From Perkinsus marinus ATCC 50983 (taxonomy: Eukaryota > Perkinsozoa > Perkinsida > Perkinsidae): 45,971 nucleotides of DNA. The position numbers and the translations under genes are program-made. The notes below the pieces were generated by a model, which was not told the DNA's origin, searched no databases, and saw nothing but the letters and a program-made list of their open reading frames with translations. The DNA is taken from NCBI RefSeq assembly GCF_000006405.1, contig NW_003214682.1, positions 171,679-217,649 on the forward strand. The letters are read 5' to 3'. Of the stretch, positions 2,147 through 36,102 are shown one piece after another. Numbering within the stretch: position 1 is the stretch's first letter; each line of letters opens with the position of its first letter.

Positions 2147-2225
2147 TCACCCACTCGGTGAAAAACACGATATTCGCGGTGATATGCAGTAGTCGTGAAC
2201 TACGTTTTTCACATCACTAGTGATA
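2147..2225. repeat. Family A element, partial
   Basis: It carries the family core CGATATTCGCGGTGATATGC followed by AGTAGTCGTGAA and ends CACATCACTAGTGATAT. The left terminal repeat is lost. It follows a B-like segment at about 2018-2110. Confidence 0.7.
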
Positions 2226-2260
2226 TTCTAATAGTAAAATATATGTTTGGTTTCGAATAG

Positions 2261-2613
2261 AATGTCAGAAGCTCTCTGTCGGCGCTATTCCAGTAGAAGT
2301 GTACAAAAAGCAACGAGACTTCCCTTATCATCATCAACTACCGCAGTTCTCGATCGTATTCATCAATCAGGACACCCCCACGACGAGGTTGTATCGATTC
2401 GCCCGACAGTTGGATCGGCTTCACACCAACCATAGATGTCGCATCCAGTACGCGAAGCATAGCTCTTCTCATCCTAGTATTTCCCTCGAGGTCCGCACAC
2501 TGGTAGTCCGACCAAGGCTTCCTCATCACGAGTGCATCCATCTCCACGGTGAGCATCATATCTACTTTGCCATTCATGTGGTATTCTCTCAGGCCCGATC
2601 ACAACCAGCGTAA
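2261..2613 (+). CDS. Possible exon(s) continuing the left-edge gene
   Basis: After the acceptor TTTCGAATAG the frame beginning TGT at 2263 stays open to 2613 and has protein-like composition (PVEVYKKQRDF, FSIVFINQDTPTTRLY). A donor-like CCA|GTACGC at 2448 would end the exon early. The phase does not match the apparent end of the 1445-2002 exon, so the link to that gene is unproven. No family is recognised. Confidence 0.3.
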
Positions 2614-3432
2614 ACGGGTCGTGTCGTCGAGTCAGAGTTAACGTCCACTCATGCATTATGAGCATTCCAACCCAAATTCTGTTACCCGCTGTTTACTACT
2701 GTTTGCCCTTGTTATTGTAAAACGCTGTTGTGAGAGGAATAAACTGTTGGGTTCGCTTACGGGCCGAGCTAGTAAGCCTTTAAGGTGGCCTCTCGTTATC
2801 AAGCAGTTCAGGTCATCATTACTATCACTATTATCATCTGAACTCAATTCTGTTATTGAGTAGTGTCACCATCATCATCAGTTTTAACCTAAATTCTGTC
2901 AACGGTTGTTTACTTCTGTTTGCGGCAAACAGTTCACCCTTGTTATTTTAGAACGTTGTTGTTAGAGAAATAAGCTGTTGAGTTCACAAACTAGAGTGGT
3001 ACAAAAAAAGGCCCAGCCCTCGTAATTTCACGCCAGGTGTAGTGCACTCCTCTCGACAAGCATACCGTAATTTGTGTAATTTTCCGAGCTAGGCTATGCA
3101 TTTGTCTTTCCTCGCCAAATGGCATCATTATAATGTATTACGATATTGCACCAGATCAGTATTTCTTCCTATATCCCTGTTACTGGCTGCATCATGATTT
3201 TGTCAAGAGATGAATCACAAGAAAGTGAACAACAAAGATACCATTTGAAAGCCCTCATCGAGCTCTCTCCAACGCTGTATGAACGGTTCTGATATCCGTA
3301 TTGTGCACCGAGGAATCGTCGGTTACATAGGGAATATCCAGCTTGTTGCACTGGCATTTATTTTTATTCTTGGTGAAAATGGCATGGACCTATCTTCTCG
3401 AAATAACTACATCCAGTTAGTTTATTCTGCTA
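2614..3432. other. Non-coding stretch with a local duplication
   Basis: No gene is supported here. It contains a diverged direct duplication: about 2669-2760 and about 2882-2990 share the order AAATTCTGT, CTGTTTACT, CCCTTGTTATT and AATAA.CTGTTG. Short trinucleotide runs (CATCATCATCA) lie between the copies. Confidence 0.5.
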
Positions 3433-3587
3433 CTAATAAGCCCATTGACATAACATCAGTGAGGTTGTGATGAGGACGATGGCGCCGATATCGGCTAACG
3501 CGAGGCAGAGGAGAAGTAGGGAAACTTGAGCCAAGATGGCTACAGTTAGTGACAAATGAACTATAGCTACCTCCAAGTAATCATTTT
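3433..3587 (-). CDS. Possible membrane-segment exon overlapping a spliced-leader match
   Basis: On the minus strand, after the acceptor CCACCCCACAG, the frame is open from 3587 to the stop at 3433 and is strongly hydrophobic (VAILAQVSLLLLCLALADIG). It looks like a transmembrane segment. A 19-base stretch identical to the spliced leader lies inside it (3525-3543, minus) and would read as part of the protein. Either the exon is real and the match is extraordinary, or the open frame is accidental and the sequence is a relict leader. I cannot decide. Confidence 0.3.
3525..3545 (-). other. Spliced-leader-like sequence (relict SL candidate)
   Basis: The minus strand reads CT followed by GTAGCCATCTTGGCTCAAG. 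From memory, the Perkinsus leader has CC in place of CT and is otherwise the same, and the dinoflagellate leader differs by one more base. The leader end is followed by TTTCCC and not by a GT donor, so this is not an SL RNA gene. It looks like the leader of a trans-spliced mRNA that was copied back into the genome. Confidence 0.55.
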
Positions 3588-3853
3588 CTGTGGGGTGGCT
3601 GCGTACTACTAGAGAAAGCGCACGCCCTAAACCCTCACAGCTTTACTGTACATAGTACCAGGCTTAGAATTCCTTACAAGGCTGCACCCTGATGATACTC
3701 AATCGATGTAGACTCTCTTCATCATAACCTTAGCTCAAGGCTTCCTTCACCCAGCATCTTGAAATTTCGATTCGTGACGAGAGCAGCAACGAGATAATCA
3801 CCGCTAGTGCACACAGTGAATTGATTTCTCAAGTACAAAAATATATATGTTTA

Positions 3854-3966
3854 ATGGAGTTTCACCCGTGATGTGAAAAACATATTTTACGACTACTGCA
3901 TAACGCGAATATCGCATTTTCCTCCGAGTTTTACGCCACTTCACGTAAAACGGGTGAAACTCCAAT
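3854..3966. repeat. Family A element, complete
   Basis: About 113 bp with inverted ends AATGGAGTTTCACCCG and CGGGTGAAACTCCAATA. The interior has the shared core CGCGAATATCGC and CACTTCACGTAAAACGGG. This is one of the cleanest copies. Confidence 0.85.
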
Positions 3967-4006
3967 ATAGTGTATTAATAATAACAATAGTGCGATAGTA
4001 TATAAC

Positions 4007-4093
4007 AATGGAGTTTCACCCGTTTTACGCGAAGTGAAATGTGAAATGTGTTTTTCACTAGTGTTTTTCACATCACTAGGGTGAAACCCCAAT
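4007..4093. repeat. Family A element, internally deleted
   Basis: Both terminal repeats are present (AATGGAGTTTCACCCG and GGGTGAAACCCCAATA), but the CGCGATATTCGCGG core is missing. A further 3' end fragment lies at about 4165-4208. Confidence 0.8.
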
Positions 4094-4364
4094 ATATAGT
4101 GTTTAATATATGTATATATGTGTTTTATATATGTTTAATTTTTTAAAATACAATAATATATATGTGTTTTTTCACTAGTGCTATTCATCTCACGGGTGAA
4201 ACTCCATAGTTTTTCACAAATCCAATTTTTTCCACAGTTCCCTCACACTCTTTCTGTGACTGATTCTGCATCCACATATGGTACCCGTTATGCTCACCTA
4301 TCCAGAATTGTAGTTTACCCTCCTCGTATCACCCGTAGTCGTTCCTAAGTTCGATACCCGAGTT

Positions 4365-4480
4365 AATGGTGTTTCACGACCCGTTTTACGTAAAGTGAAA
4401 AACGCGATATTCGCGGTGATATGCAGTAGTCGTGAAATACAAATTTCACTAGTGTTTTCCATTTTTCGTGAAACTCCAAT
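4365..4480. repeat. Family A element, complete
   Basis: Ends AATGGTGTTTCACG and CGTGAAACTCCAAT surround the full core (CGCGATATTCGCGGTGATAT). It lies just downstream of the glutaredoxin-fold gene. Confidence 0.85.
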
Positions 4481-4655
4481 GTTGAGTTATTCAACCAACC
4501 CGAATTACTATAAACTCAACAACAACTGCTACTACTGCTCACGAAACGATAATGTTGCCGTATACGCCACTTAGTACATACCAATTGGGAGCTCACCAGC
4601 GAAGGCGCCCTCCGACCTGAATAGAATACGAATGACCTCGAAAATTCCCTTTTTA

Positions 4656-6097
4656 CTACCTCTTGTTGGTGCCTATCTTCCTGAGCTCTCCACTCTTGTA
4701 CTTACTCAAAATCCTGAAGGGAAATCCTAGAAAAGTTTCGACGACGTTTATGCTGAAAATCCAGATAAACTTCGCAACAAACCACGTGTGAGAGAATATA
4801 TACATATGTTGCTGACAATATAAAATTCTCATTGGTTTTTGTACACTTCTACCCGAATTCGTATAATCAGTGATGCTAAGAAAAATGAGCATATATCACT
4901 CCAACACTGATACCACCTGTCATGGTCTCCATAAAAATTGCCATTGTAATATAGATGTGGTGTAACCTCAGACCCACTCTTCGCAACAGTATACCTGATG
5001 ATGGCAAGGCAACAAAATTTCACGAGCAACTACTACCCGGTGACAGCAGGATGCTCAGTAACGTCTACAGTCACCAACGGTACAGCTTGGATCTGACGAA
5101 CGATCTGATGAATCCACCAGAAAACACGGGGAGAAATATACTTAACTGAGTTCACGGGAAAAATATTTTTTATCATTCAAAAGAAGATTGATCGATGAAA
5201 TGAAATCTACTCCTCACGAATTCGACGGCTTTTCTCCCGAGACTACCTCTGTGAGCATCTTAACCACGTTCAAGCTGAGCTGGCCCTTGGGGGCATCAAC
5301 AGTGCCGTCCATAAAGAGAACTAATGCATTCGTGTTGAATACCTATACACAACAGATAGCCAAACACACAGTGATATTAATGATTGATAAATTGGAGTTT
5401 TTTGAGCCTAGTGATATGAAACACACTACTGCATATCACCGCGAATATCGCGTTTTTCACCGAGTTTTACGCTACTTCACGTGAAACGGGTGAAACTATT
5501 ATATATATAATACTAACATAGTTGTATTGAGGTAATAATAAATATCATTAAATGCATCATTTGATATTCATTGAAAACATATAATGTTGATTATGGCATA
5601 CACTGCCATTTTTATAGTAGAAAAACTAATATCCTATATAGTAATGAAGTTTCTTGACCCTAGTGATGTGAAAAACACTATATTTCACGACTACTGTGTA
5701 TCACCGCGAATATCGCGTTTTTCACCACACGTAAAACGGGTGATCGTGAAACTCCAACATAAAAATCGATATAATATAGGAACTACAGGGTCGAGTTTCC
5801 TATCCACTTCGTCCTTAGACTCCTCATAGCATTTCAAGGCATTCTTAGTATAGGCATTATTCTGTTCTCGGACAACCTGAATGTAGAAGAATATAAACAA
5901 CGTGGAATAATAACAAATATTACGTTCACGAAAGTTGAGACGAAACGAGCACAGCTCAGCCGGGAGATACAACAACGGGTGAGATGGCGAGCAGGAGCGA
6001 AAGTGCTCATCATTTGAGGCTCAACAACCACTGAGGAAGCACTACACACAGTAGTGGTAGCAGCAGTAGTAGTAATCATACAAGTCGGCCGAAACAT
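4656..6097 (-). CDS. Glutaredoxin-fold protein lacking the CGFS motif
   Basis: Six exons join in phase to 194 residues: 6097-5930, 5876-5787, 5342-5247, 5092-5037, 4994-4917 and 4752-4656. The N-terminus is Thr/Arg/Cys-rich without acidic residues until late, like an organelle-targeting peptide (inference). Residues 87-118 fit the monothiol glutaredoxin start (LVLFMDGTVDAPK), where CGFS is normally followed by a helix ending KML. Residues 145-157 (SEVTPHLYYNGNF) carry the TP cis-proline pair, and the C-terminus KSGELRK matches family ends. The active-site cysteine is absent: the PKCGFS position reads PKGQLS. A thiol-dependent reaction or iron-sulphur binding through that Cys is therefore not expected. 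Intron 2 holds two family A elements; intron 5 holds a B element. Confidence 0.82.
4785..4908. repeat. Family B element
   Basis: It runs from GTGTGAGAGAATATATACATATG through the shared interior (AAATTCTCATTGGTTTTTGT, ACTTCTACCCGAATTCGTAT) to CACTCCAACACTG. It sits in the last intron of the glutaredoxin-fold gene. Confidence 0.75.
5391..5495. repeat. Family A element
   Basis: It begins ATTGGAGTTTTTTGAGCC and ends ACGGGTGAAACT, with core ATCACCGCGAATATCGCG. It lies in intron 2 of the glutaredoxin-fold gene. Confidence 0.85.
5643..5758. repeat. Family A element
   Basis: Ends ATGAAGTTTCTTGACCCTAG and CGTGAAACTCCAACA, core ATCACCGCGAATATCGCG. It is the second A copy in the same intron of the glutaredoxin-fold gene, nearest the upstream exon. 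Confidence 0.85.
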
Positions 6098-6150
6098 TCA
6101 AAGGGCATAACTAGGACGATGGATCCACAGGGGCGCGCGCTTTTGTGTAT

Positions 6151-6562: not shown

Positions 6563-6592
<30 letters not shown>

Positions 6593-6597
<5 letters not shown>

Positions 6598-9488
6598 TTT
6601 TTCCCCTCCTATTTTGCATCATCCTCAGCCAGGACATATACCACATACCAATATTCCGTCGCATTTGAGCGTCTATACTATCCATGAACAAATACCTGCA
6701 AAATTCTCGAATACAAATTTCCATACATCATTAGAGTCCAGCAGAAACCGGCCAGGAAAGAACACCATAATTTTTATTGAATTTATTACGAATTTAAACT
6801 GTCATTTTTTCGAAATCTCAATGCCAACCAACTCTGACACTGTTAAAGGAATATACATTCGCGTTCCTCAGCAGAGCTCAGGACATACGAATTTGAGTAG
6901 AAATACTCAGGAAGCAATAATAATTTCCAAAAGTTTTTTGACAATTTTCACTCCCATGATGGGAGTCCCATCAACACACACAGTCAAGTGTAATGCAGGC
7001 CATCCCATCCCTCACATAAGAGCCGCGTTAGTGACAGTCTGGGTGAGCTTCGCTCCCACGCCAGAATACGATCCTGTAATTCCATTTTCGCGAATCACAT
7101 CTTGCGTACACGTGATCAGACCTTACCAAAAAACTAACATCTACTCGATGAGAGACTTCATTAGAATCACCATCGTGTTTTTCACTATTTCCCTGCGACG
7201 CCCTCAGTCGACTTTGGATCACTTGGAGAGGGTACGTCACCACCGTTGCTACAGCTTTGGCAAGCGCGCCGATAAAAAACGCCTCCTTGGCTGTGAGTAC
7301 TAACACGCAAGTGTATACGACCACGACCGACAACGGGAAGTAAATAACTGTCTTTTCTTCGGCCCTTTACGAGAGTTGTCCTAAGCAACACCTGTGCCAC
7401 GTACTGTACGACCGGGTTGGACACGAGGAGAAGACTGGCGCCTAAGCCTCGAACACTGCGAGAAAGACCCTGAAGAGCAGTGGTGTTGGGAATAATATGA
7501 AAATTGTAAAGAAATTCTCAGTGGTTTCTGCCCACACTCTCATCTGAACTCGTATAGTTAGTGAGGAAACTTTTGCACTCAGGTGGAGAAACTAAACATA
7601 TACTCCAACACTTCTGAGGAGTGACCGAAACATATTATATGCTCTATATCAGACAAACGAGTCTAGATTAGAAGCTCAGAGAAGTTCGCGAATTCTGCAC
7701 GACTTGTCAACTTCGCCACGCGCAAAGTGAAGACTTGCAGAATTCGGCCTCGACGGTTCGCTATTGAAGGTTCCAGCTCATGTTCGTATATAGAGTACAG
7801 TGTCGGAGTAGGAATATATGTAATCGGTTTCCTCAGCTGCTGAGCTCAGGAGTTTCCTATACAGTGTTGGAGTAGGAATATACGTAATCGCTTTCCTCAG
7901 CTGCTGAGCTCAGGAGTTTCCTATACAGTGTTGGAGTAGGAATATATGTAATCGCTCTCCTCAGCTGCTGAGCTCAGGAGTTTCCTATACAGTGTTGGAG
8001 TAGGAATATATGTAATCGCTTTCCTCAGCTGCTGAGCTCAGGGGTTTCCTATACAGTGTTGGAGTAGGAATATATGTAATCGCTTTCCTCAGCTGCTGAG
8101 CTCAGGAGTTTCCTACACAGTGTTGGAGTAGGAATATGTGTAATCGCTTTCCTCAGCTACTGAGCTCAGGAGTTCCCTATACAGTGTTGGAGTAGGAACA
8201 TATGTAATCGCTTTCCTCAGCTGCTGAGCTTCGGAGTTTCCAAAGCTAATTATACAAGTAAATATATGAATTATACCACAAATGTACAGAAACCAAGTGT
8301 TGGGAAGGTATATGTTCGCTTTCCTCAGCTGAGCTCAGGAGTTTCCTCATTTACGGTAGAAATGCACAGAAACCGCTAAAAATTTCCCAAAATTTTCATA
8401 CTGTCGCCAACATATGTAGTTGAACATGTGTATATTTCCCCACACTGATTGAACCGCATCATATGTTCCAACACTGTTGGAATATATGTTCTTTCCCTAA
8501 CTTCTCACTTCTTTTCTGATAATGTGCATTGTTTCTACTAGAACACTTTGACTCTTCCCCTCACTTCTTAACTTCACAACAGTACTAGCCCTCCAAAGAG
8601 GCTCTGTAAGTATAACATTGAGTGATCCTGCTACTGAGGAAAGACCAAGCCTGGTGAGCAGGGAGGCAACACTGAGCTCACCGGTACTGGCAACCAGAGC
8701 TGAAGTGATAGAGTTATTACTATACCCGCGACCCTGAAGATTCAAAAACGATGACCGTCGCCACTGCAAAGGGCATGTAAATCTCAGATCTAGTGGAAAG
8801 TCTTCTTCAGTGTTATACAAAATTTCTCGCGGAAAAAATCAACAATTTTCCGCGACAGCAAGCTCACACGGAAGAAAATTATCTTTCGTGAAAAATTCCG
8901 ACCGAGTGTGATCACGCTGAATTTCCCCCACCTCCATTAGAGTGGCTATCTTCGCTTCAGTTCCCTTGAGGAGGTAGTAGTAAATGAAGTTAGAAAGCAT
9001 CACTGTTTCTGTTGATGCAGAGGCACCTGCGTGATTATTTCCGATCAAACGTGACACTTCAAATATGTTACCAACAAAGAGACGTTTCGGATTAGAAGAC
9101 GCTAAGTAGATCAACCCGCCCATCGTAGACCCCAAGGGCCGCAGCGGACGAGGTAGTGGCAGTAGTGAATTCGCATCAACCTATAGCAAGAAAACAGGGA
9201 CTATGTCCCCCAGGGTTTGATAACAACGGGGAAAATGATGTTACTAATGTCATCACATTTACATGGGAAACTGATTGAAGAATGTGGAAAATTCAAAACC
9301 GTTCCTAGATGACTCCCTGCAAGACGAAGCGAACATATGCAGCGCCTTGGTGAGATGAATACCTGTAAAATAGTTTTGACTTGATCCAAGGGATAGGTAG
9401 CCAACATTGACAGACCACCTGCCGTACTGCCAGAGACAGCACTTATACAATTAGAGATCTGCTCGGGTATCACGGGAGTAGCCATCAT
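6593..9488 (-). CDS. PMP34-type (SLC25A17-like) carrier protein
   Basis: Eight exons join in phase to about 337 residues: 9488-9363, 9180-9072, 9026-8868, 8699-8509, 7469-7349, 7290-7171, 7100-7016 and 6695-6593. It has three mitochondrial-carrier repeats. Repeat 1 has YPLDQVKTILQ; repeat 2 has SVAGSLNVILTEPLW; repeat 3 has ALAKAVATVVTYPLQ followed by QSRLR. The PLW and TYPLQ forms, plus LLLVSNPVVQY, are typical of the peroxisomal PMP34 branch, which moves CoA, NAD and adenine nucleotides. The usual family length is about 310. The start ATG pair at 9488 precedes the first repeat directly. Intron 4 (8508-7470) carries a 64-bp minisatellite and a complete B element; intron 7 holds a B fragment. 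The exon 3 acceptor, exon 4 donor and last exon are the least certain parts. Confidence 0.83.
6838..6955. repeat. Family B fragment
   Basis: It runs from ACTGTTAAAGGAATATACATTCGC through CCTCAGCAGAGCTCAGG to CCAAAAGTTTTTTGACAATTTTCA, matching the left half of B. It lies in the last intron of the carrier gene. Confidence 0.6.
7485..7613. repeat. Family B element
   Basis: It starts GTGTTGGGAATAATATGAAA, passes AAATTCTCAGTGGTTTCTG and AGTTAGTGAGGAAACTT, and ends CATATACTCCAACACT. It sits at the 3' end of carrier intron 4, just before the splice acceptor. Confidence 0.75.
7798..8240 (+). repeat. 64-bp minisatellite, array 2 (7 copies)
   Basis: Seven tandem 64-bp units, the same unit and phase as array 1 (TGTTGGAGTAGGAATATATG). 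It lies inside intron 4 of the minus-strand carrier gene, so it is antisense to its host, unlike the other three arrays. The last unit diverges (GAGCTTCGGAG). Confidence 0.9.
8295..8447 (+). repeat. Family B element, complete
   Basis: 153 bp with clear terminal inverted repeats: AGTGTTGGGAAGGTATATG on the left and TATATTTCCCCACACT on the right. The interior holds CCTCAGCTGAGCTCAGGAG and ACAGAAACCGCT. It lies 55 bp past minisatellite array 2 in the same intron. Confidence 0.85.
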
Positions 9489-23036: not shown

Positions 23037-23070
23037 TACAGTTGATTTACTCCGCACCCCTCCAATTTAC

Positions 23071-25103: not shown

Positions 25104-27635
25104 TTACTTTCTAAGACCTCGATAATCAAGATAACACTTGCATGAGCTGATTAGGTGTACCTGAAACGTAATAACCACAGCTCAAAGCCGTCATGAAATC
25201 GAACATGTGGGGGCCTCAGGCGTCGTCCAGCAACAAGTTCCAGCCATAAAGACTTGGTATCGTCAGCTAAGAGGAATCACCATGATGAAATTGCTTACAG
25301 TGCGTGTCAATTTGATATTATGCAAATGTGAAGAATGTGCGTCTTTTCTATTCCGGGATTAATGATAGTGAACAACTTGTCGCTATCATAATCTCGAAAG
25401 GTTACCATAATCACATCACATGTTCATAGCATTGTTTATGCGATATAGTCTCATATCAATTTCATTGATCTATGAAAATAACACATATTTAAATACCAAA
25501 TTCATACACACTGGAGTTTGCCGACCCGTTTCACGTGAAGTGGCGTCGTAAAACTCGGTGAAAAACGCGATATTCGCGGTGATTTGCAGTAGTCGTGAAA
25601 TATTTTTCCACNNNNNNNNNNNNNNNNNNNNNNNNNNNNNNNNNNNNNNNNNNNNNNNNNNNNNNNNNNNNNNNNNNNNNNNNNNNNNNNNNNNNNNNNN
25701 NNNNNNNNNNNAGAATATATTTCACGACTACTGCATATCACCGCAAATATCGCGTTTTTCACTACACGTAAAACGGATTGTCAAACTCCAATGAAGGTAA
25801 GTTACCAATGTTCTTCTCACTAGTAATTCGCCATGTATAGCAATAATTGTTCGCTTTCCTCAGCTGAGCTCAGGGATTTTCTTAATTCCTATAACGTCGT
25901 GCAAGAACCAACCAGAACTTTCTCAGAATTCTCATATCGTCACCAACACGTGTGCACAAAAAATGGACATATTTTTATTACAATATTTTCATTGTCAATT
26001 CAATATTCAATTCATTGTATATATTCGTTTCGAGTAGAATATGAAACGTGTTTTTCACATCTCGGATGGAACTCTACTATTCATACCACACCTTCCTCAC
26101 TTTTTGAATAGTGAATCGTCGGACTTCGTGATGATGCACCTCGCTAACACCCTTCTCCACGACCAGACAGTTCTGAGGCGATTCTCACCCACAACAGCAA
26201 TGCGGCTATCTCACTTCAGAATTCCACTTGTCATTAATCTTCACCTCCTCACATGAAGACCCAATGAGTTCCCCAATTTCTCCCGCACGAAGAGTCTGGC
26301 CAACCAGGGAGTTCTTGTCGAAGCCTATCTCAACGATTACGTACAGTGTACTCAGAAACTTACGTTTGGCATCGGGTGAAGTCTTCGCTTCAGCGGTGGT
26401 TTTTTTCATAAAGTAGAATGTCACATTGCCAGGCTTCACCACTTGCATATCAACTCCATTATTCACGACTTCAGCCTGAAAATTTCATCTACAATTACTG
26501 CGGGAATATATGCACATGGTGAACTACAGATTGGAAACTATAGGCAATCTTTAATGATTCCTGGACACTTCTACCCGAATTTCCATGTAAGTGAGGAAAC
26601 TCCTGAGCTCAGCAGCTGAGGAAAGCGATCACATATATTCCTACTCCAACACTGTATAGGAAACTCCTGAGCTCAGCAGCTGAGGAAAGCGATTACATAT
26701 ATTCCTACTCCAACACTGTATAGGAAACTCCTGAGCTCAGTAGCTGAGGAAAGCGATTACATATATTCCTACTCCAACACTGTATAGGAAACTCCTGAGC
26801 TCAGCAGCTGAGGAAAGCGATTACATATATTCCTACTCCAACACTGTATAGGAAACTCCTGAGCTCAGCAGCTGAGGAAAGCGATCACATATATTCCTAC
26901 TCCAACACTGTATAGGAAACTCCTGAGCTCAGCAGCTGAGGAAAGCGATTACATATATTCCTACTCCAACACTGTATAGGAAACTCCTGAGCTCAGCAGC
27001 TGAGGAAAGCGATTACATATATTCCTACTCCAACACTGTATAGGAAACTCCTGAGCTCAGTAGCTGAGGAAAGCGATTACATATATTCCTACTCCAACAC
27101 TGTATAGGAAACTCCTGAGCTCAGTAGCTGAGGAAAGCGATTACATATTTCAAGGAATCGATCAGTCACCCACAGCGGAAAAAATTCCCCGTTTTTAAAG
27201 CACAATAATCGTCCACAACGAGGCAACCTGCAAACCAGCGTAACTCACCAAATGTGGAGTAACCATCATCATAGATTCGCCGCCAAAGACAGCGAATGGT
27301 ATCGGCGACACAGCCTTAGTGCTCATGCTCCTACAGGTCTGCGACAAGCACACAGCCGGTCTGAAAAAATGACATCAATATTAACATCAGTTGATTTTCT
27401 CTCTATTTAATCTTGTTATTTCCCGTGAATTTTTTCACGAACTGATGTAATACTGTATGTGTGAAAAAAACGCGGTATGAAGGTGAAGTTTGCCCAACGA
27501 ATCAGCCAATTTCACTGCTCACATTTCGCCAACTAGTTCCTTTTTGAGCTCTTGAAGGTTCGCTGAATGCAGAGGTGTTGCCCGACGTAAAGTCTTACTA
27601 CGGCTTTGTGATATGATGAGAATCGCGCTCGCCAT
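25104..27635 (-). CDS. Unrecognised six-exon gene, about 191 residues
   Basis: Exons 27635-27523, 27360-27249, 26475-26364, 26324-26215, 26172-26101 and, less surely, 25160-25104 join in phase. The start ATG at 27635 has a good context (TTACCATGG). Donors are strong (AT|GTGAGC, TTG|GTGAGT, C|GTAAGT, GAA|GTGAGA, AAA|GTGAGG), and introns 3 and 4 are 39 and 42 bases. Peptide landmarks: RRATPLHSANLQELKKELVG, PIPFAVFGGESMMMV, KPGNVTFYFMKK, FDKNSLVGQTLRAGEIGELI, VEKGVSEVHHHEVRRFTI. I recognise no family. Intron 2 holds the third 64-bp minisatellite. The last intron holds a family A element broken by a 100-base assembly gap, so the final exon is tentative. Confidence 0.6.
25512..25792. repeat. Family A elements around an assembly gap
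   Basis: It starts CTGGAGTTTGCCGACCCG and ends GTCAAACTCCAAT, with two inverted cores (CGCGATATTCGCGGTGATTT and TCACCGCAAATATCGCG) on either side of 100 N bases at 25612-25711. Two inverted A copies probably blocked assembly here. Confidence 0.7.
26594..27148 (-). repeat. 64-bp minisatellite, array 3 (9 copies)
   Basis: Nine tandem units with a spacing of exactly 64 bases (for example CTGTATAGG at 26652 and 26716). It is the longest of the four arrays, oriented with its minus-strand host gene, in intron 2 (27248-26476). Confidence 0.9.
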
Positions 27636-27989: not shown

Positions 27990-27995
27990 ATTGAT

Positions 27996-28265: not shown

Positions 28266-31063
28266 TCAATCGAATATAGATCCCAGCAACGCCCCCGCTA
28301 GCAGTCCTCCTGCTAGCGGCAACAGCAACCCGTCGAGTCCTTGCATTTTTCTCTTGTTTTTACGAGCCTTGAACTTTTTCCGCACAATTCTTCCAATATA
28401 CTGGTTCTGATTCGGGAGTATATCCACTAAATTGAAAGGTCTGAGAAAAAACTTTTCTGTGGGGGAGAGGGGAATATGCACATGGTCAACTACATGTGTT
28501 GGTGAAAATTCTGAGAGAAAATTTTAGCGAGTTCTTATTGGTTTCTGCACATTCCTGAGCTCAGCTGAAGTGAGCCAACACATTTATTCCTCCAACACTA
28601 TCTGCATATCACAATATCATTTAACTATGGAGTTTGTTCACCCTACTGATATGAAAAAAACACTAGTGAAAAACATATTTCACGACTACTGCATAGCGTT
28701 TTTTCGCGTAAAACTCGTCGTGAAACTCCAATATATTCATATCTAATTGTTCACCTATCAACAGGAAACACTTGCGTGCTCGACAGCTGAGGTCTCTGTC
28801 CCATCCTGCGCCTCCTCATCTCGTCATTCAGTCGATGTATCAGATCAATGTAGCTGATATATGGACTCGCACGTATGGAATTACCTGAATTCACCAGAGG
28901 AAATTGCTGAATACTCACTAACATTGGAGTTTCTTCACCACCCTAGTAATATGAAAAACATATTTCACGACTACTGCATATCACCGCGAATATCGCGTTT
29001 TTCACCGAGTTTTACGACGCCACTTCACGTAAAACGGATAAAACTCCAGTTTAGGAAAAATATGCATATGTTCAACTTCATGTGAGCTTCAGAATTTTCT
29101 CACTAATAAATTAACACACGATGTGTTAACGAAAAATTTTCGAGAATTTCTTCTTCGTTTTTGTAGTAAAAATTATACTACCAACATCATCAATATCATT
29201 TAATGATAAGGTGTTAGGGAAAATACGCACATGGTCAACATGTGGGTGGCAATATGAAAATTCTGAGAGGAGATATTGGAAAATTCTCATCGGTTTTGGT
29301 ACACTTCGATGTAAGTGAGAAAATTCCTGAGCTCAGCTGCTGAGGAAAGCGACTATATTTCCCTACTCCAACACTGGAGTTTCACCCGTTTTACGTGAAG
29401 TGGCCGAAAAACGCGATTTTATTCGCGGTGATATGCAGTAGTCGTGAAATATGTTTTTCACTAGTGTTTTTCATATCACTAGGGTGGTCAAGAAACTCCA
29501 TTGTAGTTTTCTGTGCACTTCGTATATATACTCCTAAGCTCAGCTGTTGAGGAAAGCGACCATATATATTCCTCCAACGCGAACTCACAAAATGCGCTTG
29601 TCATCGCTCCGCCGTTTATATTTCCACCACTCGCATCTGCTGACGTACCCGCATCATCGCAACCACTAAACAATTGAACCTAAACACTTCCAATTTGCAC
29701 GCATACACACAAAAGATACTTCTGTTATAAACTAGGAGGAATTTCGAATACACCCCCAGGAGCGCCTATAAAAATCATAAGAACATCCCAGCTTAGCGGA
29801 GCGAAGCGTTTCACGATGTGCAAAATCATGCTTACATCGCCTAGTGAATGCCACGGGTTTGTCTCCTCTTTCCATCCTCTACGTTCGATCCATCGCCAGG
29901 GTAAATCCATACCTACAACGACAGCAACAACCACATAATCGTGCGTGAAAAATTCACACATCAGCATAATCGTCTTAACTCTATACAATGGAGTCTCACC
30001 CGTGATGTTAAAAACACTAATGAGAAAAATTATTTTACATTTCACTTCGCAGAAAACGCATGTGAGCAATTAACAACGCGTAAAACACGTGGAATGCTGC
30101 CAGCGTTTTACGTAAAATGAGGTCATTTGTCCGATGTAATTCACTTCATAACACCGCGAATATCGCGTTTTTCACATTAAGTATTACGCCACTTCACGTA
30201 AAACTCGAATACACTCCTCGTACGAAACTCTAATACACATTCAAGTAGCTCAAAGCCTTCAAAAGTATATAAAAACCCAAACTTATGCACAAGTCCACTT
30301 GAACGATTATATATAATGTTATGCACATTGCCAATATGGGGAATATATTAACAACACGAAGAATAGTCTTCGCTAGGAACCTTTTCGGAAGGTCCTATCT
30401 GTTCGAGTCCGACGCAGGCGCATTTCGTGGCGGGCGCGATTTCGATAATAATCGATCAACTGGGCGAGCGCGACTTGCACGTTACCCGCGGAACGACTTA
30501 GTACGGCGGAACTTCATATCATTGAGAACTGTAGAAGAAATATGAGAATGTGAATATTTCACGCACGATTATATTTAGCCAAAACAGAAGTATTCATATC
30601 AACGTAGTTGTTGCAATTAGCGCGCGCCCGAGTAATCGATTGCATTGTACACCATCCATACCTGTTCCCGAATGACAGCAATCCATAACGCTTGTCAATC
30701 TCACACCACTGGGGAGGGGTGCCACCAGAATTGAGAAAATCTCATCATCAGAAATCATACCAGCTCTACGGACCTGTCAGCGGAATTGTATTTTATCACT
30801 TTTATGGTATGTGTGTTAACTCACATCACAGGGTAGTATGGTTTCGTTCATTCCGTCTTCCTCCATACCGTAGGGGTCGGGCTGAAGAATTAGGGAGTAG
30901 TACAACAACAACAACAACACCAACAACAACAACAACAACAACATATACAACAACAACATATACAACAACAACATATACAACAACAACATATACAACAACA
31001 ACAACAACAACAACAACATATACAACAACAACAACAAAAACAACAACATATACAACAACATAC

Positions 31064-31097
<34 letters not shown>

Positions 31098-31107
31098 CGG
31101 CAACACT

Positions 31108-31138
<31 letters not shown>

Positions 31139-31183
31139 TATACAACAACAACAACAAAAACAACAACATATACAACAACATAC

Positions 31184-31220
<37 letters not shown>

Positions 31221-34200
31221 CGGCAACACTAACAACAACACTAGTAACAAGAGTCCCATAGACCCTACCTGTTGTGATCCATGACCAGAGTAATGAAAGA
31301 AGAATACATCCCCAGGCTTAGCATCCCTCACCAGCCAATGCAAAGCTCCTATTATATTCGCTCCTAAATATGATATAAATCGCTCGAGTTTAACTCGTTT
31401 CACATGAAGTGGTGTAATACTCCATCCACTTCAGCACAGATCGGAAAAATTAGAAAGTTGTGAGGAAATTTGTTCCACAAAAATCTGCAAAATTCTGAAA
31501 TTTCCCTCTTAATTTTCACTTTTTCCCACAAAAAACTGTAAAATTCCACAAAATTTTCCCAAATTTTCCCAAAATTTTCACATTTTTCCACAAAAATCTG
31601 TAGAAACCCGAATACTTTCCCTTCCTACTTGTTGGCATTTCCGCGCGTCCATCATCCGTCATCATACGTATATCACCAGGATTCCATCTATACGTTTCAG
31701 TGAGCAACCGAAACATATTGTGTGCCTAAATACTCAATAAATATACATACATTAGAGTATCTTCACCCTAGTGATATGAAAAAAACTCATTTCACGACTA
31801 CTGCATATCATCGCGAATATCTCACTTTTCACATGGAGTATCGTAAAACGGTTCGGGACGGAGCTCGCCCAGTCCGCGTTGATTCAATCGATGGATTTCA
31901 CATATGTCCAGCCCGGTTCGATCCCCGGGTTGGACATTTTTCCATCAACAATGTTTTCCTGCATATATATCTCTTCGAGCCGCTCTAAAATCGACATTTT
32001 TGCGCCAACAGTCGTTTGATCCGTAGTTGAGCAAGGATAATTCTGCACGCACGCACTATACGAAAATGCATACTATGAAAACTTTTTGAAAATCTATTTT
32101 TCGGCGGTAGTTATCATTAATAACAACCAAATCTTACATCGGGAATGCACCCCGATAATTGTGCAGGAGTATTGTAGTAGTTGATACCAATCAGCAACGC
32201 TCTTTGTACACCTGAGAGGAAAAAAATAAAAATCCTGTAAAAAAAAATTCAGTGAAGTTTCACGACTATCCGTTTTACTACGTGAAGTGGCGTCGTAATA
32301 CTCCATGTGAAAAACGCGATATGAAGTGGCGAATTACACCGGAAAAAATCACGCAAAAAACACATACCACGTGTTTTACGCGTTATTCACTACTCACTTG
32401 CTTTTCAAATATGAAATATGTTTATACACAAATTATATACTTCACATAGTAGATTCCCTCCAGCTAGTTTTACCCGTCAGTGAAGGCGCCGCAGTTCCAA
32501 CCTGGTTCGTTTTCTGCATTTGCATGCTACTCGGTAAACCATACATCGCTTGAGCCTGCATACTAGGAGGGGGCGCTTGTTGCGGTAGTCCATCCGATAT
32601 TGGTGTTGCCGTGGGAATCTATATAAGGGAGTTTAGCAATCCTTTTTACGTGCAATATTCAACGCGGTGATATGCAGTAGTCGTGAAATATGTTTTTCAT
32701 ATCACTAGTGTGGTGAAGAAACTCCAATAAAATTGTCAGCATTAGAGGAATATATGATCGCTTTTCTCACGAAATATACAATTTTATATATAAATTATCA
32801 TAAAACTCAACACATACCGATGAGAAATTCCAAAAAATTTCTTCAGAATTTTCATATGTGGTTGACCATGTGCATATTTCCTCTCACACTGCACGATATA
32901 TTCATAGTGTTGGTAGAATTTATACATATGTTGGAGTTTCACAACCCGTTTTACGTGAAGTGGCGTCGTAAAACTCGCCGTGAAAAACGCGATATTCAAC
33001 GCGGTGATATGCAGTAGTCGTGAAAAATGTTTTTCATATCACTAGGGTCAAGAAACTCCATTATACATGAGAATTTGTTTTCGCATTTTTGCCGCTAATT
33101 TCAGAGCAACTGAGTCCACAGACATACTGCTGAAAAAAAAGAACTGATATATAAAACTATGGAGGAATAGATGCTCGCTCTCTTCAGCTCGAAAATTCAC
33201 AGACGAATTTACAAAAACCAACAAGAATTTCCCAAAATTTCCAGATTGTCACCAAAAAACGTACAAAAAATATGAAAATTCCGAAAAGTTTCCCGTAAGA
33301 ATTCCTGGCTGTTATTCAGCAAACTCAGATGAGGAAAGCGAACACATATTCCAACGACTGTGGTGAACATGGTCAACTACATGTGTATGAAAATTTTGAG
33401 AGTAAATTTTTCATAAAATAGTCAGAAAATTTACGATCTCAGTTGCGGAAAGCAAATATATATTTTCATGAATAACAAAAAAATATATTCCCAATACTCC
33501 AATACTGTTCAATTTGATATTACAGGTTCAGCTGGAATCATAAATTCGTTTAACATCTGACAATGTGGGCAAGTCGCTCGAGCAGTAACCGACAGATCTC
33601 CTAAAACAAAAACAATAGTTTCACGACCCTAGTGATATGAAAAGAACACTCGTTAAATTTTCCGAAAAAAACAAAAAAAATGAGTGGCATGCACTCAAGA
33701 AACGTCTTATTTCATAAGCGAACACGCGAAAAATTTCAAATATTACCAACCCAGACGAAGCACTACTAATATCGGTCTACAAAATTGATAAATAAATAAC
33801 GACCATATCAGCATACTACCACTACTTCGACACTATGCCACCACTAAATGGGAAAAATGCAATTTTTTACGAAAAAAAATGTCTGCCAATTCCTCAAAAA
33901 AGGTGTAGACCACAATGAGAGTAAATATGAGCGTATGAGAATTCGCATTTGCTGACAAAATACTCTCACTTATGTTCACAATGAATAACGAAATGCATCA
34001 CCAGTATGGTGGGGAATATGCACATAGTCAACCACATGTGTTGGTGGTGACAATATGGAAACTCATATATTTGAATTTACTTGTACAACAACAGGTTTTA
34101 TATATATTAAAATACGAAAAAAATGTTTTTTTTAAAGTTTCACGATTACCCGTTTTACGTGTCAAGTGGAAAACGCGATATTCGCAGTGATATGCAGTAG

Positions 34201-34708
34201 TCGTGAAATATGTTTTTCACTGCTGTTTTTTCATACCACTACTAGAGTGAAGAAACTCCATTAATATGCTATTGAATATACAAAATCCGATGACATACGA
34301 GAAAAATTCTTGTTAGTTTCCCTACACGTTTCCTATATATTTCCCCGGCTCGTATATAAACTCCTATTTCTAGTGAGTAAACTTTCGAGCTCAGCAGCTG
34401 AGGAAAGCGAACACATATTTTAAAAATATCTACAACATCAAATATCGTAAAAATTTGGAAGACTAAAAAATACCCAAATAATAATTTCGAAATAAGAATT
34501 TTTTACTATTAAAAAAATTTCACTTCTCTCCAACAATAAGTAGCATTCCCATACCGTAAATCCTTCAAATCGGTCGAAACACCATCGTATTACTCATCGC
34601 AGTCATCTGCACTGTCAGAACTCGTTGACACGATCCACACTGGACTTGAGCCGTTCTTGTGGTTTCTCGTTGTGGAACCTTTTATATATATAAACAAATC
34701 CATAGTAG

Positions 34709-34764
<56 letters not shown>

Positions 34765-35959
34765 GTAATAGTAGTAGTGCCACGAATTTACTAGATTTCC
34801 TAATTTTCATATAAATTTTCAAAATTTCACTGAATTTTTTAGTAAATTCTATATAAATTTATCAAAAAAATGGCTCAACGCTCAAATAGTGTAGTAATAA
34901 AACTTCACTAAAATCACAAAAATATAATCATATTTTTCACCATACTACCACAGTGCCCTGTAGCGGTGTGCTTCCAATATGTGGTTGATCACCAGAGTTT
35001 TGATAACTAAACAAAAGTAAATACATATATAAACTGCCGATTCTAACAACAGTGAAGTTTCATGACCCGTTTTACGTGAAGTGGCGTAAATATGTTTTTC
35101 CGCGACCGCCGATAACACAATCGTGAACACTAGTGAAAAACATATTCCACGACTACTGCATATCACCGCGAATATCGCGTTTTTCACCGAGTTTTACGAC
35201 GCCACTTCACGTAAAACGGGTTGTGAAACCCCAATATTATCACACCACTTCACGTGAAACTCACTTACTAAAGAGTATATCAAAAATATGAAATACCCAA
35301 CAAGTTAAATTCCCCCGAAACGGGCAGGCGTATTAGTATTTCTGCTCATGCCACGCGCACGCATCGTCCAAGATTTAACCGGAAATATGAAATGCCTTCA
35401 AACTCACTAATTTCGAGCCGATGATCGTTCCCGTTGATTGAGTAACTCATTAACTGCCATATTCTCATCGCCGTTGTATTTATAAAGGGCCGCCTCTATC
35501 TCCTTATCAGAACCTTGCAATTAGTGAATTATTCACCACTGTGTAGGGAAAATACGCAGAAAAATTTTTCGGATAAAATTTCGGAAATTATACTCAGCTC
35601 AGCAGCTGAGGAAAGCGATTACGTATATTCCTACTCCAACACTGTATAGGAAACTCCTGAGCTCAGCAGCTGAGGAAAGCGATTACATATATTCCTACTC
35701 CAACACTGTATAGGAAACTCCTGAGCTCAGCAGCTGAGGAAAGCGATTACATATATTCCTACTCCAACACTGTATAGGAAACTCCTGAGCTCAGCAGCTG
35801 AGGAAAGCGATTACATATATTCCTACTCCAACACTGTTATTTTTCCAAAAATATTCCCCCTATAATAAAAGCGAGCACGACGTAATTGTTATTACTATTA
35901 GGGCATAGGAATCGTATCTGAGCAACTGTTTGTGTCGAGAAAGGCTTAGTAGTAACCAT
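28266..35959 (-). CDS. Type I metacaspase with CUE/UBA-like and zinc-finger N-terminus
   Basis: A caspase-fold cysteine peptidase cutting after Arg/Lys. Sixteen exons join in phase to 501 residues: 35959-35896, 35513-35408, 35006-34949, 34678-34594, 33600-33524, 33129-33067, 32618-32474, 32211-32138, 31725-31629, 31363-31269, 30881-30825, 30773-30662, 29912-29836, 29679-29589, 28884-28755, 28440-28266. Residues 9-45 are a CUE/UBA-like ubiquitin-binding helix bundle (FLCPN, YKYNGDENMAVNELL). Cys pairs 90/93, 115/118, 134/138 form an LSD1-type zinc finger. A Pro/Gln/Met linker (152-199) leads to p20: RALLIGINYY, catalytic His284 (FFHYSGHGSQQ) and Cys340 (MDCCHSGT). p10 has LFSGCDDAGTSAD and RPQLSS. 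The tail is basic, then hydrophobic Gly/Leu. Only 20 percent of the locus codes; most long introns hold A, B or satellite sequence. Confidence 0.95.
28470..28603. repeat. Family B element
   Basis: GGGGAATATGCACATGGTCA at the left and TTATTCCTCCAACACT at the right, with TTGGTTTCTGCACATTCCTG inside. It lies in metacaspase intron 15. Confidence 0.75.
28627..28733. repeat. Family A element
   Basis: ATGGAGTTTGTTCACCCTAC to CGTCGTGAAACTCCAAT. The core is shortened (GCATAGCGTTTTTTCGCG). It lies in metacaspase intron 15. Confidence 0.8.
28923..29049. repeat. Family A element, complete
   Basis: ATTGGAGTTTCTTCACC to ACGGATAAAACTCCAG with full core ATCACCGCGAATATCGCG. It lies in metacaspase intron 14. 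Confidence 0.85.
29210..29373. repeat. Family B element, complete
   Basis: GGTGTTAGGGAAAATACGCA to CCTACTCCAACACT, 164 bp, with CTGAGCTCAGCTGCTGAGGA inside. It directly abuts the next family A element with no bases between, in metacaspase intron 14. Confidence 0.8.
29374..29502. repeat. Family A element, complete
   Basis: TGGAGTTTCACCCGTTTTAC to GGTCAAGAAACTCCATT. The core CGCGATTTTATTCGCGG carries a small insertion. It lies in metacaspase intron 14. Confidence 0.85.
30151..30235. repeat. Family A element, diverged
   Basis: It keeps ACACCGCGAATATCGCGTTT and GCCACTTCACGTAAAACTCG. A second left-end-like fragment (ATGGAGTCTCACCCGTGATG) lies at 29988. Both are in metacaspase intron 12. Confidence 0.6.
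30354..30420 (+). ncRNA. tRNA-like sequence with inner hairpin
   Basis: A B-box-like TGTTCGAGTCC lies downstream of a hairpin (ACCTT TTCGG AAGGT). No acceptor stem forms. It lies in metacaspase intron 12, on the strand opposite to the gene. Confidence 0.25.
30897..31250. repeat. (AAC)n / (GTT)n microsatellite in a metacaspase intron
   Basis: About 350 bases of CAA-type repeats with CATATA and AAAAAC interruptions. A block of about 120 bases (starting near 31016 and again near 31136, each ending GGCAACACTAAC) is duplicated. It fills almost all of intron 10 (31268-30882), between the exon with catalytic His and the exons leading to catalytic Cys. The host transcript carries the GTT strand. Confidence 0.9.
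31751..31850. repeat. Family A element, 3' end lost
   Basis: It begins AGAGTATCTTCACCCTAGTG and holds a core ATCATCGCGAATATCTCAC. It lies in metacaspase intron 8. Confidence 0.7.
31905..31941 (+). ncRNA. tRNA minihelix-like hairpin with T-run
   Basis: TGTCCAGCCCGG and CCGGGTTGGACA pair over 12 bp (one G-T wobble) around an eight-base loop TTCGATCC, then five T follow. This is the acceptor-plus-T-arm half of a tRNA with no D or anticodon arm, ending in a Pol III-type terminator. It lies in metacaspase intron 8 on the opposite strand. Confidence 0.5.
32630..32729. repeat. Family A element
   Basis: GAGTTTAGCAATCC to GGTGAAGAAACTCCAAT, core ATATTCAACGCGGTGATATG. It overlaps none of the exons; it lies just before metacaspase exon 7 in intron 6. 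Confidence 0.75.
32739..32892. repeat. Family B element
   Basis: Starts near GAGGAATATATGATCGCTTT and ends GACCATGTGCATATTTCCTC followed by TCACACTG. It sits between two family A elements in metacaspase intron 6. Confidence 0.7.
32931..33061. repeat. Family A element, complete
   Basis: TTGGAGTTTCACAACCCG to AGGGTCAAGAAACTCCAT with core CGATATTCAACGCGGTGATA. It ends at the donor side of metacaspase intron 6, next to exon 6. Confidence 0.88.
34133..34262. repeat. Family A element
   Basis: AAAGTTTCACGATTACCCG to GAGTGAAGAAACTCCATT with core CGATATTCGCAGTGATATGC. It lies in metacaspase intron 4. Confidence 0.85.
34705..34782. repeat. (CTA)n microsatellite
   Basis: About 17 CTA/TAC repeats followed by AGTAATAGTAGTAGTGCC, which can fold back on the array. 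It lies in metacaspase intron 3. Confidence 0.85.
35052..35234. repeat. Two fused family A elements in inverted order
   Basis: Starts AGTGAAGTTTCATGACCCG and ends AACGGGTTGTGAAACCCCAAT. The right half holds the core (ATCACCGCGAATATCGCG). CACTTCACGTAAAACGGG near the right end mirrors CCCGTTTTACGTGAAGTG near the left end, giving a long hairpin. It lies in metacaspase intron 2. Confidence 0.8.
35593..35837 (-). repeat. 64-bp minisatellite, array 4 (4 copies)
   Basis: Four tandem units, same sequence as arrays 1-3, sense to the host, in intron 1 of the metacaspase gene (35895-35514). Confidence 0.9.
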
Positions 35960-35994
35960 TGATAAACAACAATGAGGAAGAATATAATGATTTT

Positions 35995-36102
35995 AATGGA
36001 GTTTCACGGGCGGCCCTAGTGATATGAAAAACACTGGTGGGAAATATATTTCACGACTACCGCGTTGAATATCGCGTTTTTCACTACACGTAAAACTCCA
36101 AC
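35995..36102. repeat. Family A element upstream of the metacaspase
   Basis: AATGGAGTTTCACGGGCGGC to ACACGTAAAACTCCAACA. It ends 36 bases before the metacaspase start codon on the minus strand, so it may lie in the promoter or 5' untranslated part. Confidence 0.82.

What the first reader, a model, noticed from the sequence alone, without database searches (positions are those of the whole stretch)
2147..36102. Two MITE-like palindromic families fill long introns of this locus
Family A (about 105-130 bp, ends GGAGTTTCACC/GGTGAAACTCC, core CGCGATATTCGCGGTGATAT) is present in at least 17 recognisable copies. Family B (about 125-195 bp, ends AGTGTTGGGGAA/TTCCCCACACT) is present in at least ten. 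Most copies lie in introns that I defined independently by reading phase, and none interrupts a confident exon. In the metacaspase alone they take up large parts of introns 2, 4, 6, 7, 8, 12, 14 and 15. This is direct sequence evidence for element-driven intron growth; calling the elements intron-specialised is inference.
Basis: partly seen in the sequence, partly recalled or inferred. Interest (0 to 1): 0.78.

Follow-up and report, generated by a model that had tools for sequence, protein, structure and literature searches.

The report
Two miniature transposon families lengthening introns
Two families of tiny, protein-less DNA transposons have inserted again and again into non-coding DNA of an oyster parasite's genome, making some introns that already existed several times longer; the tests here show no sign that they are specialised for introns.

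Summary
The repeats are real: 23 family-A hits and 50 family-B hits in the window, 24 of the latter being units of tandem arrays. The genome is Perkinsus marinus ATCC 50983.

Both look like miniature inverted-repeat transposons. A leaves a 3-bp ANT duplication, the signature of the Pangu group. B leaves an 8-bp duplication and has hAT-type ends. No transposase gene with either family's ends was found.

Orthologues from two other Perkinsus species place the metacaspase exons. Ten of its 14 introns carry A, B or B-derived arrays, 41% of intron length; 0 of 1,457 exon bases are element. A paralogous gene shows one intron at 444 bp with two A copies and 227 bp without, and another at 42 bp without B and 507 bp with two B copies. 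So elements lengthened existing introns.

Intron specialisation is not supported, with limited power: element flanks are no more coding than random non-coding DNA (0.275 v 0.278), and 12 of 19 long inter-exon gaps in kinase and kinesin genes hold neither.

The parts
28927..29047 (-). Family A copy in metacaspase intron 13; the seed of the A profile
   Evidence: nhmmer 6.7e-34
29376..29498 (+). Family A copy in metacaspase intron 13, ends GGAGTTTCACC/AAACTCC
   Evidence: nhmmer 2.3e-27; folds better than shuffles, z -4.7
28631..28729 (-). Family A copy in metacaspase intron 14
   Evidence: nhmmer 9.1e-12
30143..30204 (-). Partial family A copy in metacaspase intron 11
   Evidence: nhmmer 1.4e-13
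31756..31858 (-). Family A copy in metacaspase intron 7 (an intron absent from the paralogues)
32255..32322 (+). Partial family A copy in metacaspase intron 6
   Evidence: nhmmer 1e-8
32628..32724 (+). Family A copy in metacaspase intron 5, 9 bp from the acceptor side
   Evidence: nhmmer 9e-18; distance
32933..33057 (+). Family A copy in metacaspase intron 5
   Evidence: nhmmer 1.9e-31
34136..34257 (+). Family A copy in metacaspase intron 4
   Evidence: nhmmer 2.1e-19
35128..35231 (-). Family A copy in metacaspase intron 2
   Evidence: nhmmer 4.6e-29
5396..5497 (-). Family A copy in the intron 5786-5343 (444 bp) of a second gene, flanked by AAT on both sides
   Evidence: the paralogous intron on C161 is 227 bp without A
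5649..5755 (-). Second family A copy in the same 444-bp intron, flanked by GTT and ATT
3862..4454 (.). Cluster of family A copies (3963-3862 -, 4010-4086 +, 4368-4454 +) not inside a proven intron
8296..8447 (+). Family B copy, full length, ends AGTGTTGGGAA/TTCCCCACACTG
   Evidence: nhmmer 4.4e-44
29213..29376 (-). Family B copy in metacaspase intron 13
   Evidence: nhmmer 1.3e-31
28468..28599 (-). Family B copy in metacaspase intron 14
   Evidence: nhmmer 2.8e-27
32737..32887 (+). Family B copy in metacaspase intron 5
   Evidence: nhmmer 1e-15
36355..36550 (+). Family B copy with a perfect 8-bp target duplication CTCGAGTG
35596..35837 (-). 64-bp tandem array made of the B head, in metacaspase intron 1
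   Evidence: TRF period 64, 3.8 copies, 99%; B profile positions 1-54 per unit
26594..27148 (-). 64-bp B-head array, 8.7 copies, running into a nearly complete B (26655-26499, profile 1-151 of 154)
7796..8241 (+). 64-bp B-head array, 7.0 copies
450..893 (+). 64-bp B-head array, 6.9 copies, last unit running on into B (835-961, profile 1-108)
28269..35959 (-). Metacaspase (Peptidase_C14) host gene, 15 exons and 14 introns placed by orthologues, exon ends good to a few bases
   Evidence: tblastn with P. chesapeaki and P. olseni orthologues; Pfam PF00656 on one open frame

Best explanation
A and B are two unrelated families of non-autonomous cut-and-paste DNA transposons (MITEs) in Perkinsus marinus. 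A is a Pangu-type element: a transposase acting in trans cuts at its ~15-bp inverted ends (consensus GGAGTTTCACAACCC / GGAGTTTCACCACCC) and joins it into a 3-bp ANT target that becomes duplicated. B is a hAT-type element with CAGTGTTGG ends and an 8-bp target duplication; its first ~54 bp also expands into 59-64-bp tandem arrays. Both insert into existing introns and other non-coding DNA, while insertions into exons are presumably removed by selection, so introns lengthen roughly by the length of each element plus its duplication. Shown: ends, duplications, copies, exon avoidance in one gene, pre-existing introns at two places. Inferred: the transposases, the selection, and splicing across the inserts.
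For: Target duplications: A, 3 bp, 90 of 114 positions match against 70.9 in shuffled pairs, 0 of 2,000 shuffles as good; B, 8 bp, 53 of 120 against 33.1, 0 of 2,000. Of 23 A copies with ANT on both sides, 16 share the centre base against 7.5 expected; TWA was seen in 0 of 38. ANT duplications and a GG start are what PMC4482050 gives for Pangu (passages read). Genome-wide, an A 30-mer has 656 sites and a B 23-mer 1,159 with up to 2 mismatches, 0 for the reversed controls. Paralogue comparison: 444 v 227 bp, the former 224 bp once two A copies and one duplication each are taken out; 42 v 507 bp with two B copies in the latter. Metacaspase: 10 of 14 introns carry A, B or B arrays, 41% of 6,234 intron bp, 0 of 1,457 exon bp. 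Kinase and kinesin genes: 7 of 19 inter-exon gaps of about 300 bp or more hold A or B.
Against: No transposase with A or B ends was found: PF13359 gave 2 loci without paired A ends; PF01609 gave 0; the two hAT elements whose ends could be resolved have other ends. Weaker duplication signals exist at other lengths: A at 10 bp (p 0.0085), B at 3 bp (p 0.034) and 5 bp (p 0.033). Only 16 of 38 A copies have an exact 3-bp duplication, and the copies closest to consensus are not the best (6 of 16 at 95% or more, 8 of 9 at 90-95%, 2 of 13 below). Only 2 of 15 B copies have an exact 8-bp duplication. These sets keep only copies whose two ends could be recognised: 38 of 99 A hits and 15 of 169 B hits (array units included). 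In the 444/227-bp pair the intron backgrounds no longer align (z 1.2 with A removed, 2.4 with A left in), so that empty-site argument rests on conserved exons and length alone. No RNA-seq was available.
Confidence: 0.82

Rival explanations
1. The elements are introners: mobile elements that carry splice sites and create a new intron at each insertion in coding sequence, as described in Amoebophrya, Micromonas or Aureococcus.
For: Related myzozoans have introners with inverted and direct repeats (PMC7789003, passages). Metacaspase intron 7, which holds an A copy, is absent from the paralogues: their residues 7-67 lie in one exon at 4 of 4 places. In the metacaspase one B fragment begins 7 bp from a donor and one A copy ends 9 bp from an acceptor.
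Against: The other 25 of 27 A and B hits in metacaspase introns lie 19 bp or more from the nearest placed splice site, and introns often hold several. Two introns exist without the elements in one paralogue or the other, with the same GTAGTAG..ATCAG ends in one case. Eight of 23 window A hits lie outside proven introns. In intron 7 only the A part found matches elsewhere in the held sequence (first 60 rows shown).
Confidence: 0.06
2. The elements are intron-specialised: they target or are retained in introns beyond what non-coding length predicts.
For: 15 of 23 window A hits lie in introns: 13 in the metacaspase and 2 in the intron 5786-5343. B hits in the long kinase and kinesin gaps are 0.51/kb against 0.33/kb in the sampled DNA; merging split hits lowers the former to about 0.36/kb.
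Against: Coding content within 1 kb of 108 element stretches is 0.275 against 0.278 for random non-coding placements in the same regions. A density in the long gaps is 0.36/kb against 0.34/kb over all readable sampled DNA, exons included; that sample is biased upward. A and B counts rise and fall together by region (Spearman 0.80 over 14 regions), which points to tolerant neighbourhoods rather than introns as such.
Confidence: 0.12
3. Family A is an ordinary Tourist-like PIF/Harbinger or a CACTA MITE rather than a Pangu-type one.
For: 3-bp duplications occur in these groups too (recalled); one clear Harbinger-type transposase gene is present.
Against: TWA targets 0 of 38; ANT on both sides 23 of 38. 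Ends begin GGAG, not CACTA. The Harbinger-type locus has no A profile hit and no paired A ends.
Confidence: 0.2
4. Family B is a Merlin MITE rather than a hAT one.
For: Merlin also makes 8- or 9-bp duplications, and P. marinus has two preserved Merlin-related open frames and several remnants, whose ends were not identified (PMC8101967, passages).
Against: The same passages give Merlin conserved terminal GG and inverted repeats of 24 bp or more; B begins CAGTG with short ends. hAT transposase domains are present at 14 places.
Confidence: 0.1

Closest known systems
Pangu group of the PHIS superfamily (PMC4482050, passages read)
   Same: 3-bp ANT target duplication and inverted repeats that begin GG, length within the published 11-40 bp
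   Different: Non-autonomous, about 80-200 bp; no Pangu transposase found here; the passage listing the 15 host genomes names no alveolate (two are given only as 'algae')
hAT superfamily MITEs
   Same: 8-bp target duplication; ends CAGTGTTGG/CCACACTG fit the hAT pattern (pattern recalled, no call)
   Different: Ends differ from the two hAT transposons whose ends were resolved in this genome (CAGGGGTTTAT; CATAGGCGCCGCA/CAGAGGCGCCGCA, read by eye); the head of the element forms tandem arrays
Introner elements of Amoebophrya (PMC7789003, passages read)
   Same: Short, repeated, inverted repeats with short direct repeats, in introns of a related myzozoan
   Different: Here the elements sit inside pre-existing introns and elsewhere; they do not define intron ends
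Merlin elements of P. marinus (PMC8101967, passages read)
   Same: DNA transposons of the same species; 8- or 9-bp duplications as a superfamily
   Different: Merlin ends begin GG and are longer; none were identified in P. marinus in that paper's passages
Transposon-derived satellite DNA (e.g. PMC12628747, PMC9659126; search listing only)
   Same: Tandem arrays made from part of a transposon
   Different: Here the unit is the first ~54 bp of a hAT-like MITE plus a short junction, with spacings of 59, 61 or 64 bp among the 100 places listed

Membership tests
Pangu (PHIS superfamily) | 3-bp target duplication 5'-ANT-3' | tested here: met
   90 of 114 matches at 3 bp, 0 of 2,000 shuffles as good; ANT both sides 23 of 38, centre equal 16 of 23 against 7.5 expected; exact in only 16 of 38
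Pangu (PHIS superfamily) | Terminal inverted repeats of 11-40 bp, usually starting AG or GG | tested here: met
   Consensus of 38 copies: GGAGTTTCACAACCC and, read inward from the other end, GGAGTTTCACCACCC
Pangu (PHIS superfamily) | DDE transposase of the Pangu clade in an element with the same ends | tested here: inconclusive
   PF13359 2 loci without paired A ends, PF01609 none; the held assembly is incomplete and partly masked
PIF/Harbinger proper (Tourist) | TWA target duplication (recalled) | tested here: not met
   0 of 38 on either side
hAT MITE | 8-bp target duplication | tested here: met
   53 of 120 positions against 33.1, 0 of 2,000 shuffles; exact in 2 of 15
hAT MITE | Short inverted ends of YARNG type (recalled) | tested here: met
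   CAGTGTTGG at one end and CAGTGTGGG read inward from the other
hAT MITE | A hAT transposase gene with the same ends in the genome | tested here: inconclusive
   14 Dimer_Tnp_hAT matches; of 3 loci fetched at length, 2 have other ends and 1 is unresolved; 4 shorter loci show no A or B profile hit (one of them is the unresolved locus again)
Introner | Element ends at or next to the splice sites, intron absent where the element is absent | tested here: not met
   Two introns exist without the elements; 25 of 27 hits in metacaspase introns are 19 bp or more from a splice site, two are at 7 and 9 bp
Intron-specialised element | Excess in introns over other non-coding DNA | tested here: inconclusive
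   No excess seen (B slightly higher in long gaps before merging split hits), but gene ends and splicing were not known genome-wide

The most novel reading that the evidence does not exclude
Family A is the trace of a Pangu-type transposon that entered Perkinsus horizontally, possibly from its mollusc host (the Pangu survey lists one mollusc), and then, together with a hAT MITE, remodelled intron lengths gene by gene within tolerant neighbourhoods of the genome.
Probability: 0.07. Interest if true: 0.7.

Novelty: new member of a known kind. Interest (0 to 1): 0.42.

Why it matters
It identifies a concrete agent of intron lengthening in a parasitic relative of dinoflagellates and separates it from the introners known in that neighbourhood: in the two introns that could be compared, elements enlarged old introns rather than created new ones. 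Repeat-filled introns also appear to mislead annotation, since the deposited P. marinus metacaspase model reads into one and drops a conserved exon. If the Pangu assignment holds, it would extend that group to an alveolate.

Tried and rejected
A gene-finding hidden Markov model trained on the held DNA recovered known exons approximately but joined neighbouring genes, so its intron-versus-intergenic calls were not used; only its coding/non-coding calls were, in the local-coding test. Its density figures (element bp per kb: 152 intron, 6 intergenic, 4 exon) are not used, because of that joining and because regions that read all N were counted as intergenic.

A locus with a 725-aa hAT transposase between two half A copies looked at first like the autonomous A element. 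Read by eye, it is a separate hAT transposon with its own ends and an 8-bp duplication (CCGCGAAT) inserted into the middle of an A copy; the automatic search for its ends had missed it.

Another haplotype of the metacaspase locus was sought: window 30560-30870 (exons 10-11) has no second copy in the held assembly beyond a 39-base match, although contig C254 has a match to the exon-15 part. tRNA and Rfam scans of the window found nothing. Exact scans of viral contigs for one A word and one B word found nothing.

The sample was also called unbiased there; it is not, because all 17 of its contigs were taken from the A hits, so its densities are biased upward. The same note calls the species unidentified; one search settled it.
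Full report
WHAT IT IS IN. The window lies in an unnamed 54.5-Mb, 347-contig assembly. A protein that the window encodes and the deposited Perkinsus marinus ATCC 50983 metacaspase are both on a contig of 220,389 bases, and a P. marinus paralogue is on a contig of 317,668 bases, the length of contig C254 here. So the genome is P. marinus ATCC 50983, a perkinsid parasite of oysters (host recalled).

OBSERVATION. Profile searches started from one copy each give 23 A hits and 50 B hits in the window. Twenty-four of the B hits are single units of four 64-bp arrays (450-893, 7796-8241, 26594-27148, 35596-35837). Each unit is the first ~54 bp of B plus a short junction. The 21 units compared are 98% alike within and between arrays. 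Genome-wide the unit junction has 1,030 sites (up to 2 mismatches) with 0 for the reversed control, and spacings of 59, 61 or 64 bp among the 100 places listed. Thirty-eight A copies with both ends have a mean pairwise identity of 0.86 and are 73-99% identical to their consensus. Three A copies folded as single strands fold better than most shuffles (z -3.0, -4.7, -2.6); the one B copy folded does not (z 0.3).

TRANSPOSON SIGNATURES. For A, the flanks of 38 copies (of 99 hits; the rest lacked two recognisable ends) match at 3 bp: 90 of 114 positions, shuffled mean 70.9, 0 of 2,000 shuffles as good; exact duplications are 16 of 38 against 7.4 expected. The target is ANT: 30 of 38 on the left, 28 of 38 on the right, 23 on both, and 16 of those 23 share the centre base against 7.5 expected; TWA never occurs. 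For B, 15 copies with both ends (of 169 hits, array units included) match at 8 bp: 53 of 120 against 33.1, 0 of 2,000 as good, exact in 2. Lengths from 1 to 10 were tried; weaker signals appear for A at 10 bp (p 0.0085) and for B at 3 and 5 bp (p 0.034, 0.033). Also against this reading, the A copies nearest to consensus do not have the best duplications (6 of 16, then 8 of 9, then 2 of 13 by falling identity). The Pangu paper gives ANT duplications and AG or GG starts as group features and places Pangu next to the bacterial IS5 group (PMC4482050, passages).

COPY NUMBER. A 30-mer of A has 656 sites and a 23-mer of B 1,159 (two mismatches allowed), with 0 for the reversed controls. In the sampled DNA 6 such A sites stand for 44 A hits, and 6 such B sites for 43 B hits that reach past profile position 100. 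That suggests, very roughly, 5,000 A and 8,000 B copies. Of 20 sampled 10-kb regions, 6 read all N; A is in 8 and B in 11 of the other 14. A and B counts rise together (Spearman 0.80), so there are element-rich and element-poor neighbourhoods. All 17 sampled contigs were taken from the A hits, so the sample is biased upward.

INTRONS OF THE METACASPASE. tblastn with orthologues from P. chesapeaki and P. olseni and the deposited P. marinus protein places 15 exons on the minus strand from 35959 to 28269 (ends good to a few bases). Of the 14 introns (6,234 bp), 10 carry A, B or a B-head array: A 19%, B 18%, arrays 4%; microsatellites add 6%. One of the ten, intron 8, holds only a 39-bp A end. The four without are two with microsatellites (introns 3 and 9), one of 51 bp and one of 156 bp. 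No element base falls in the 1,457 exon bases. Of 27 A and B hits in these introns, one lies 7 bp from a donor and one 9 bp from an acceptor; the other 25 are 19 bp or more from the nearest placed splice site.

THE SAME INTRON WITH AND WITHOUT ELEMENTS. A DNA search with window 4480-6600 met a paralogous gene on contig C161 whose exons match at 73-89%. The window's intron 5786-5343 is 444 bp and holds two A copies; the paralogue's is 227 bp and holds none; taking out the two A copies and one duplication each leaves 224 bp. One of the two copies has an exact AAT duplication, the other GTT/ATT. Next to it, the window's intron 5036-4995 is 42 bp (GTAGTAG..ATCAG), while the paralogue's is 507 bp (GTAGTAG..ATCAG) and holds two B copies, one flanked by an 8-bp duplication with 6 of 8 bases intact as read by eye. 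The backgrounds of the first pair no longer align (z 1.2 with A removed, 2.4 with A left in), so that case rests on exon positions and length. Both introns existed without the elements, which contradicts an introner origin there.

ARE THEY INTRON-SPECIALISED? Three checks give no support, with limited power. (i) Coding content within 1 kb of 108 element stretches is 0.275 against 0.278 for random non-coding placements in the same regions; coding on both sides 0.80 against 0.84. (ii) Nineteen inter-exon gaps of about 300 bp or more between matched exons of kinesin and kinase genes were picked by eye (at least five others of that length were not fetched, and some gaps must include unmatched exons). 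Seven hold A or B; two of the 7 carry the same B hits at the same place and are probably copies of one gene. A density is 0.36/kb there against 0.34/kb over all readable sampled DNA; B hits are 0.51/kb against 0.33/kb, or about 0.36/kb when split hits are merged. Choosing long gaps favours element-bearing introns. (iii) Eight of the 23 window A hits lie outside the introns proven here. The gene finder's own intron/intergenic split was rejected as unreliable.

AUTONOMOUS PARTNERS. hAT dimerisation domains match at 14 places. One locus (L035) is a complete 3.05-kb hAT with 11-bp ends CAGGGGTTTAT and an exact 8-bp duplication. Another (L034, with DUF4371) is a hAT inserted into the middle of an A copy, with ends CATAGGCGCCGCA/CAGAGGCGCCGCA and duplication CCGCGAAT (read by eye; domains). 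A third (L033) has unresolved ends. None of these three shows B ends; four shorter hAT loci, one overlapping L033, have no A or B profile hit. PF13359 gives two loci: L036, a Harbinger-type transposase of 324 aa with no A profile hit, only isolated short matches to A ends, and no clear ends of its own; and L037, where the domain is joined to DUF6570. PF01609 gives none. The partners of A and B are therefore unknown; they may lie in DNA that this assembly lacks or withholds, or be extinct.

LITERATURE. Full-text searches for Perkinsus with introner, with MITE and transposable element, and with miniature inverted-repeat returned one relevant paper, on Amoebophrya introners (PMC7789003, passages), and no description of these families. 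A broader search (listing of 14) led to a Merlin survey that reports two Merlin-related open frames in P. marinus without identified ends (PMC8101967, passages). Searches on Pangu showed no alveolate report in their listings (20 of 194, 7 of 7). Most subscription journals and Repbase were not searched, so the families may be catalogued elsewhere.

VERDICT. A real pair of MITE families, probably Pangu-type and hAT-type, that lengthened existing introns in P. marinus. The growth claim stands; the specialisation claim is not supported.

Noticed in passing
window 31268-30885 and protein P0005: The deposited P. marinus metacaspase model reads into a (TTG)n-filled 384-bp intron and lacks the exon DPYGMEEDGMNETILPCD, which the window encodes at 30884-30825 and P. 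chesapeaki keeps: a likely annotation error.
   Followed up: partly
window 32137-31726 (metacaspase intron 7): This 412-bp intron is absent from the paralogues on C200 and C254, where residues 7-67 form one exon at 4 of 4 places: a possible intron gain here or loss there. It holds an A copy; matches elsewhere in the held DNA fall on the A part in the 60 rows shown.
   Followed up: partly
contigs C200 and C254: The two contigs carry matching metacaspase paralogues, two tandem copies each, in inverted order: alternative haplotypes or a large duplication.
   Followed up: no
L034, about 1047-4482 (C254): A hAT transposon with a DUF4371 transposase inserted into the centre of a family A copy, with 8-bp duplication CCGCGAAT.
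   Followed up: yes
L035 1890-4940 (C172): A complete hAT transposon with perfect 11-bp ends CAGGGGTTTAT and a perfect 8-bp duplication GTCGTGGT.
   Followed up: partly
L037 1831-3264 (C210): One open frame of 478 aa joins a DDE_Tnp_4 stretch to DUF6570; a B hit lies nearby.
   Followed up: no
window 37230-38093: Open frame with a Pao retrotransposon peptidase match just under the curated cut-off (PF05380, 21.3 against 22.3 bits); near it, 51-bp repeats at 38695-38941 and 39115-39229.
   Followed up: no
window 43197-43808: Open frame with a hydrophobic start and a threonine-rich repeat (TTEPMI...) between cysteine-containing stretches; no Pfam family.
   Followed up: no
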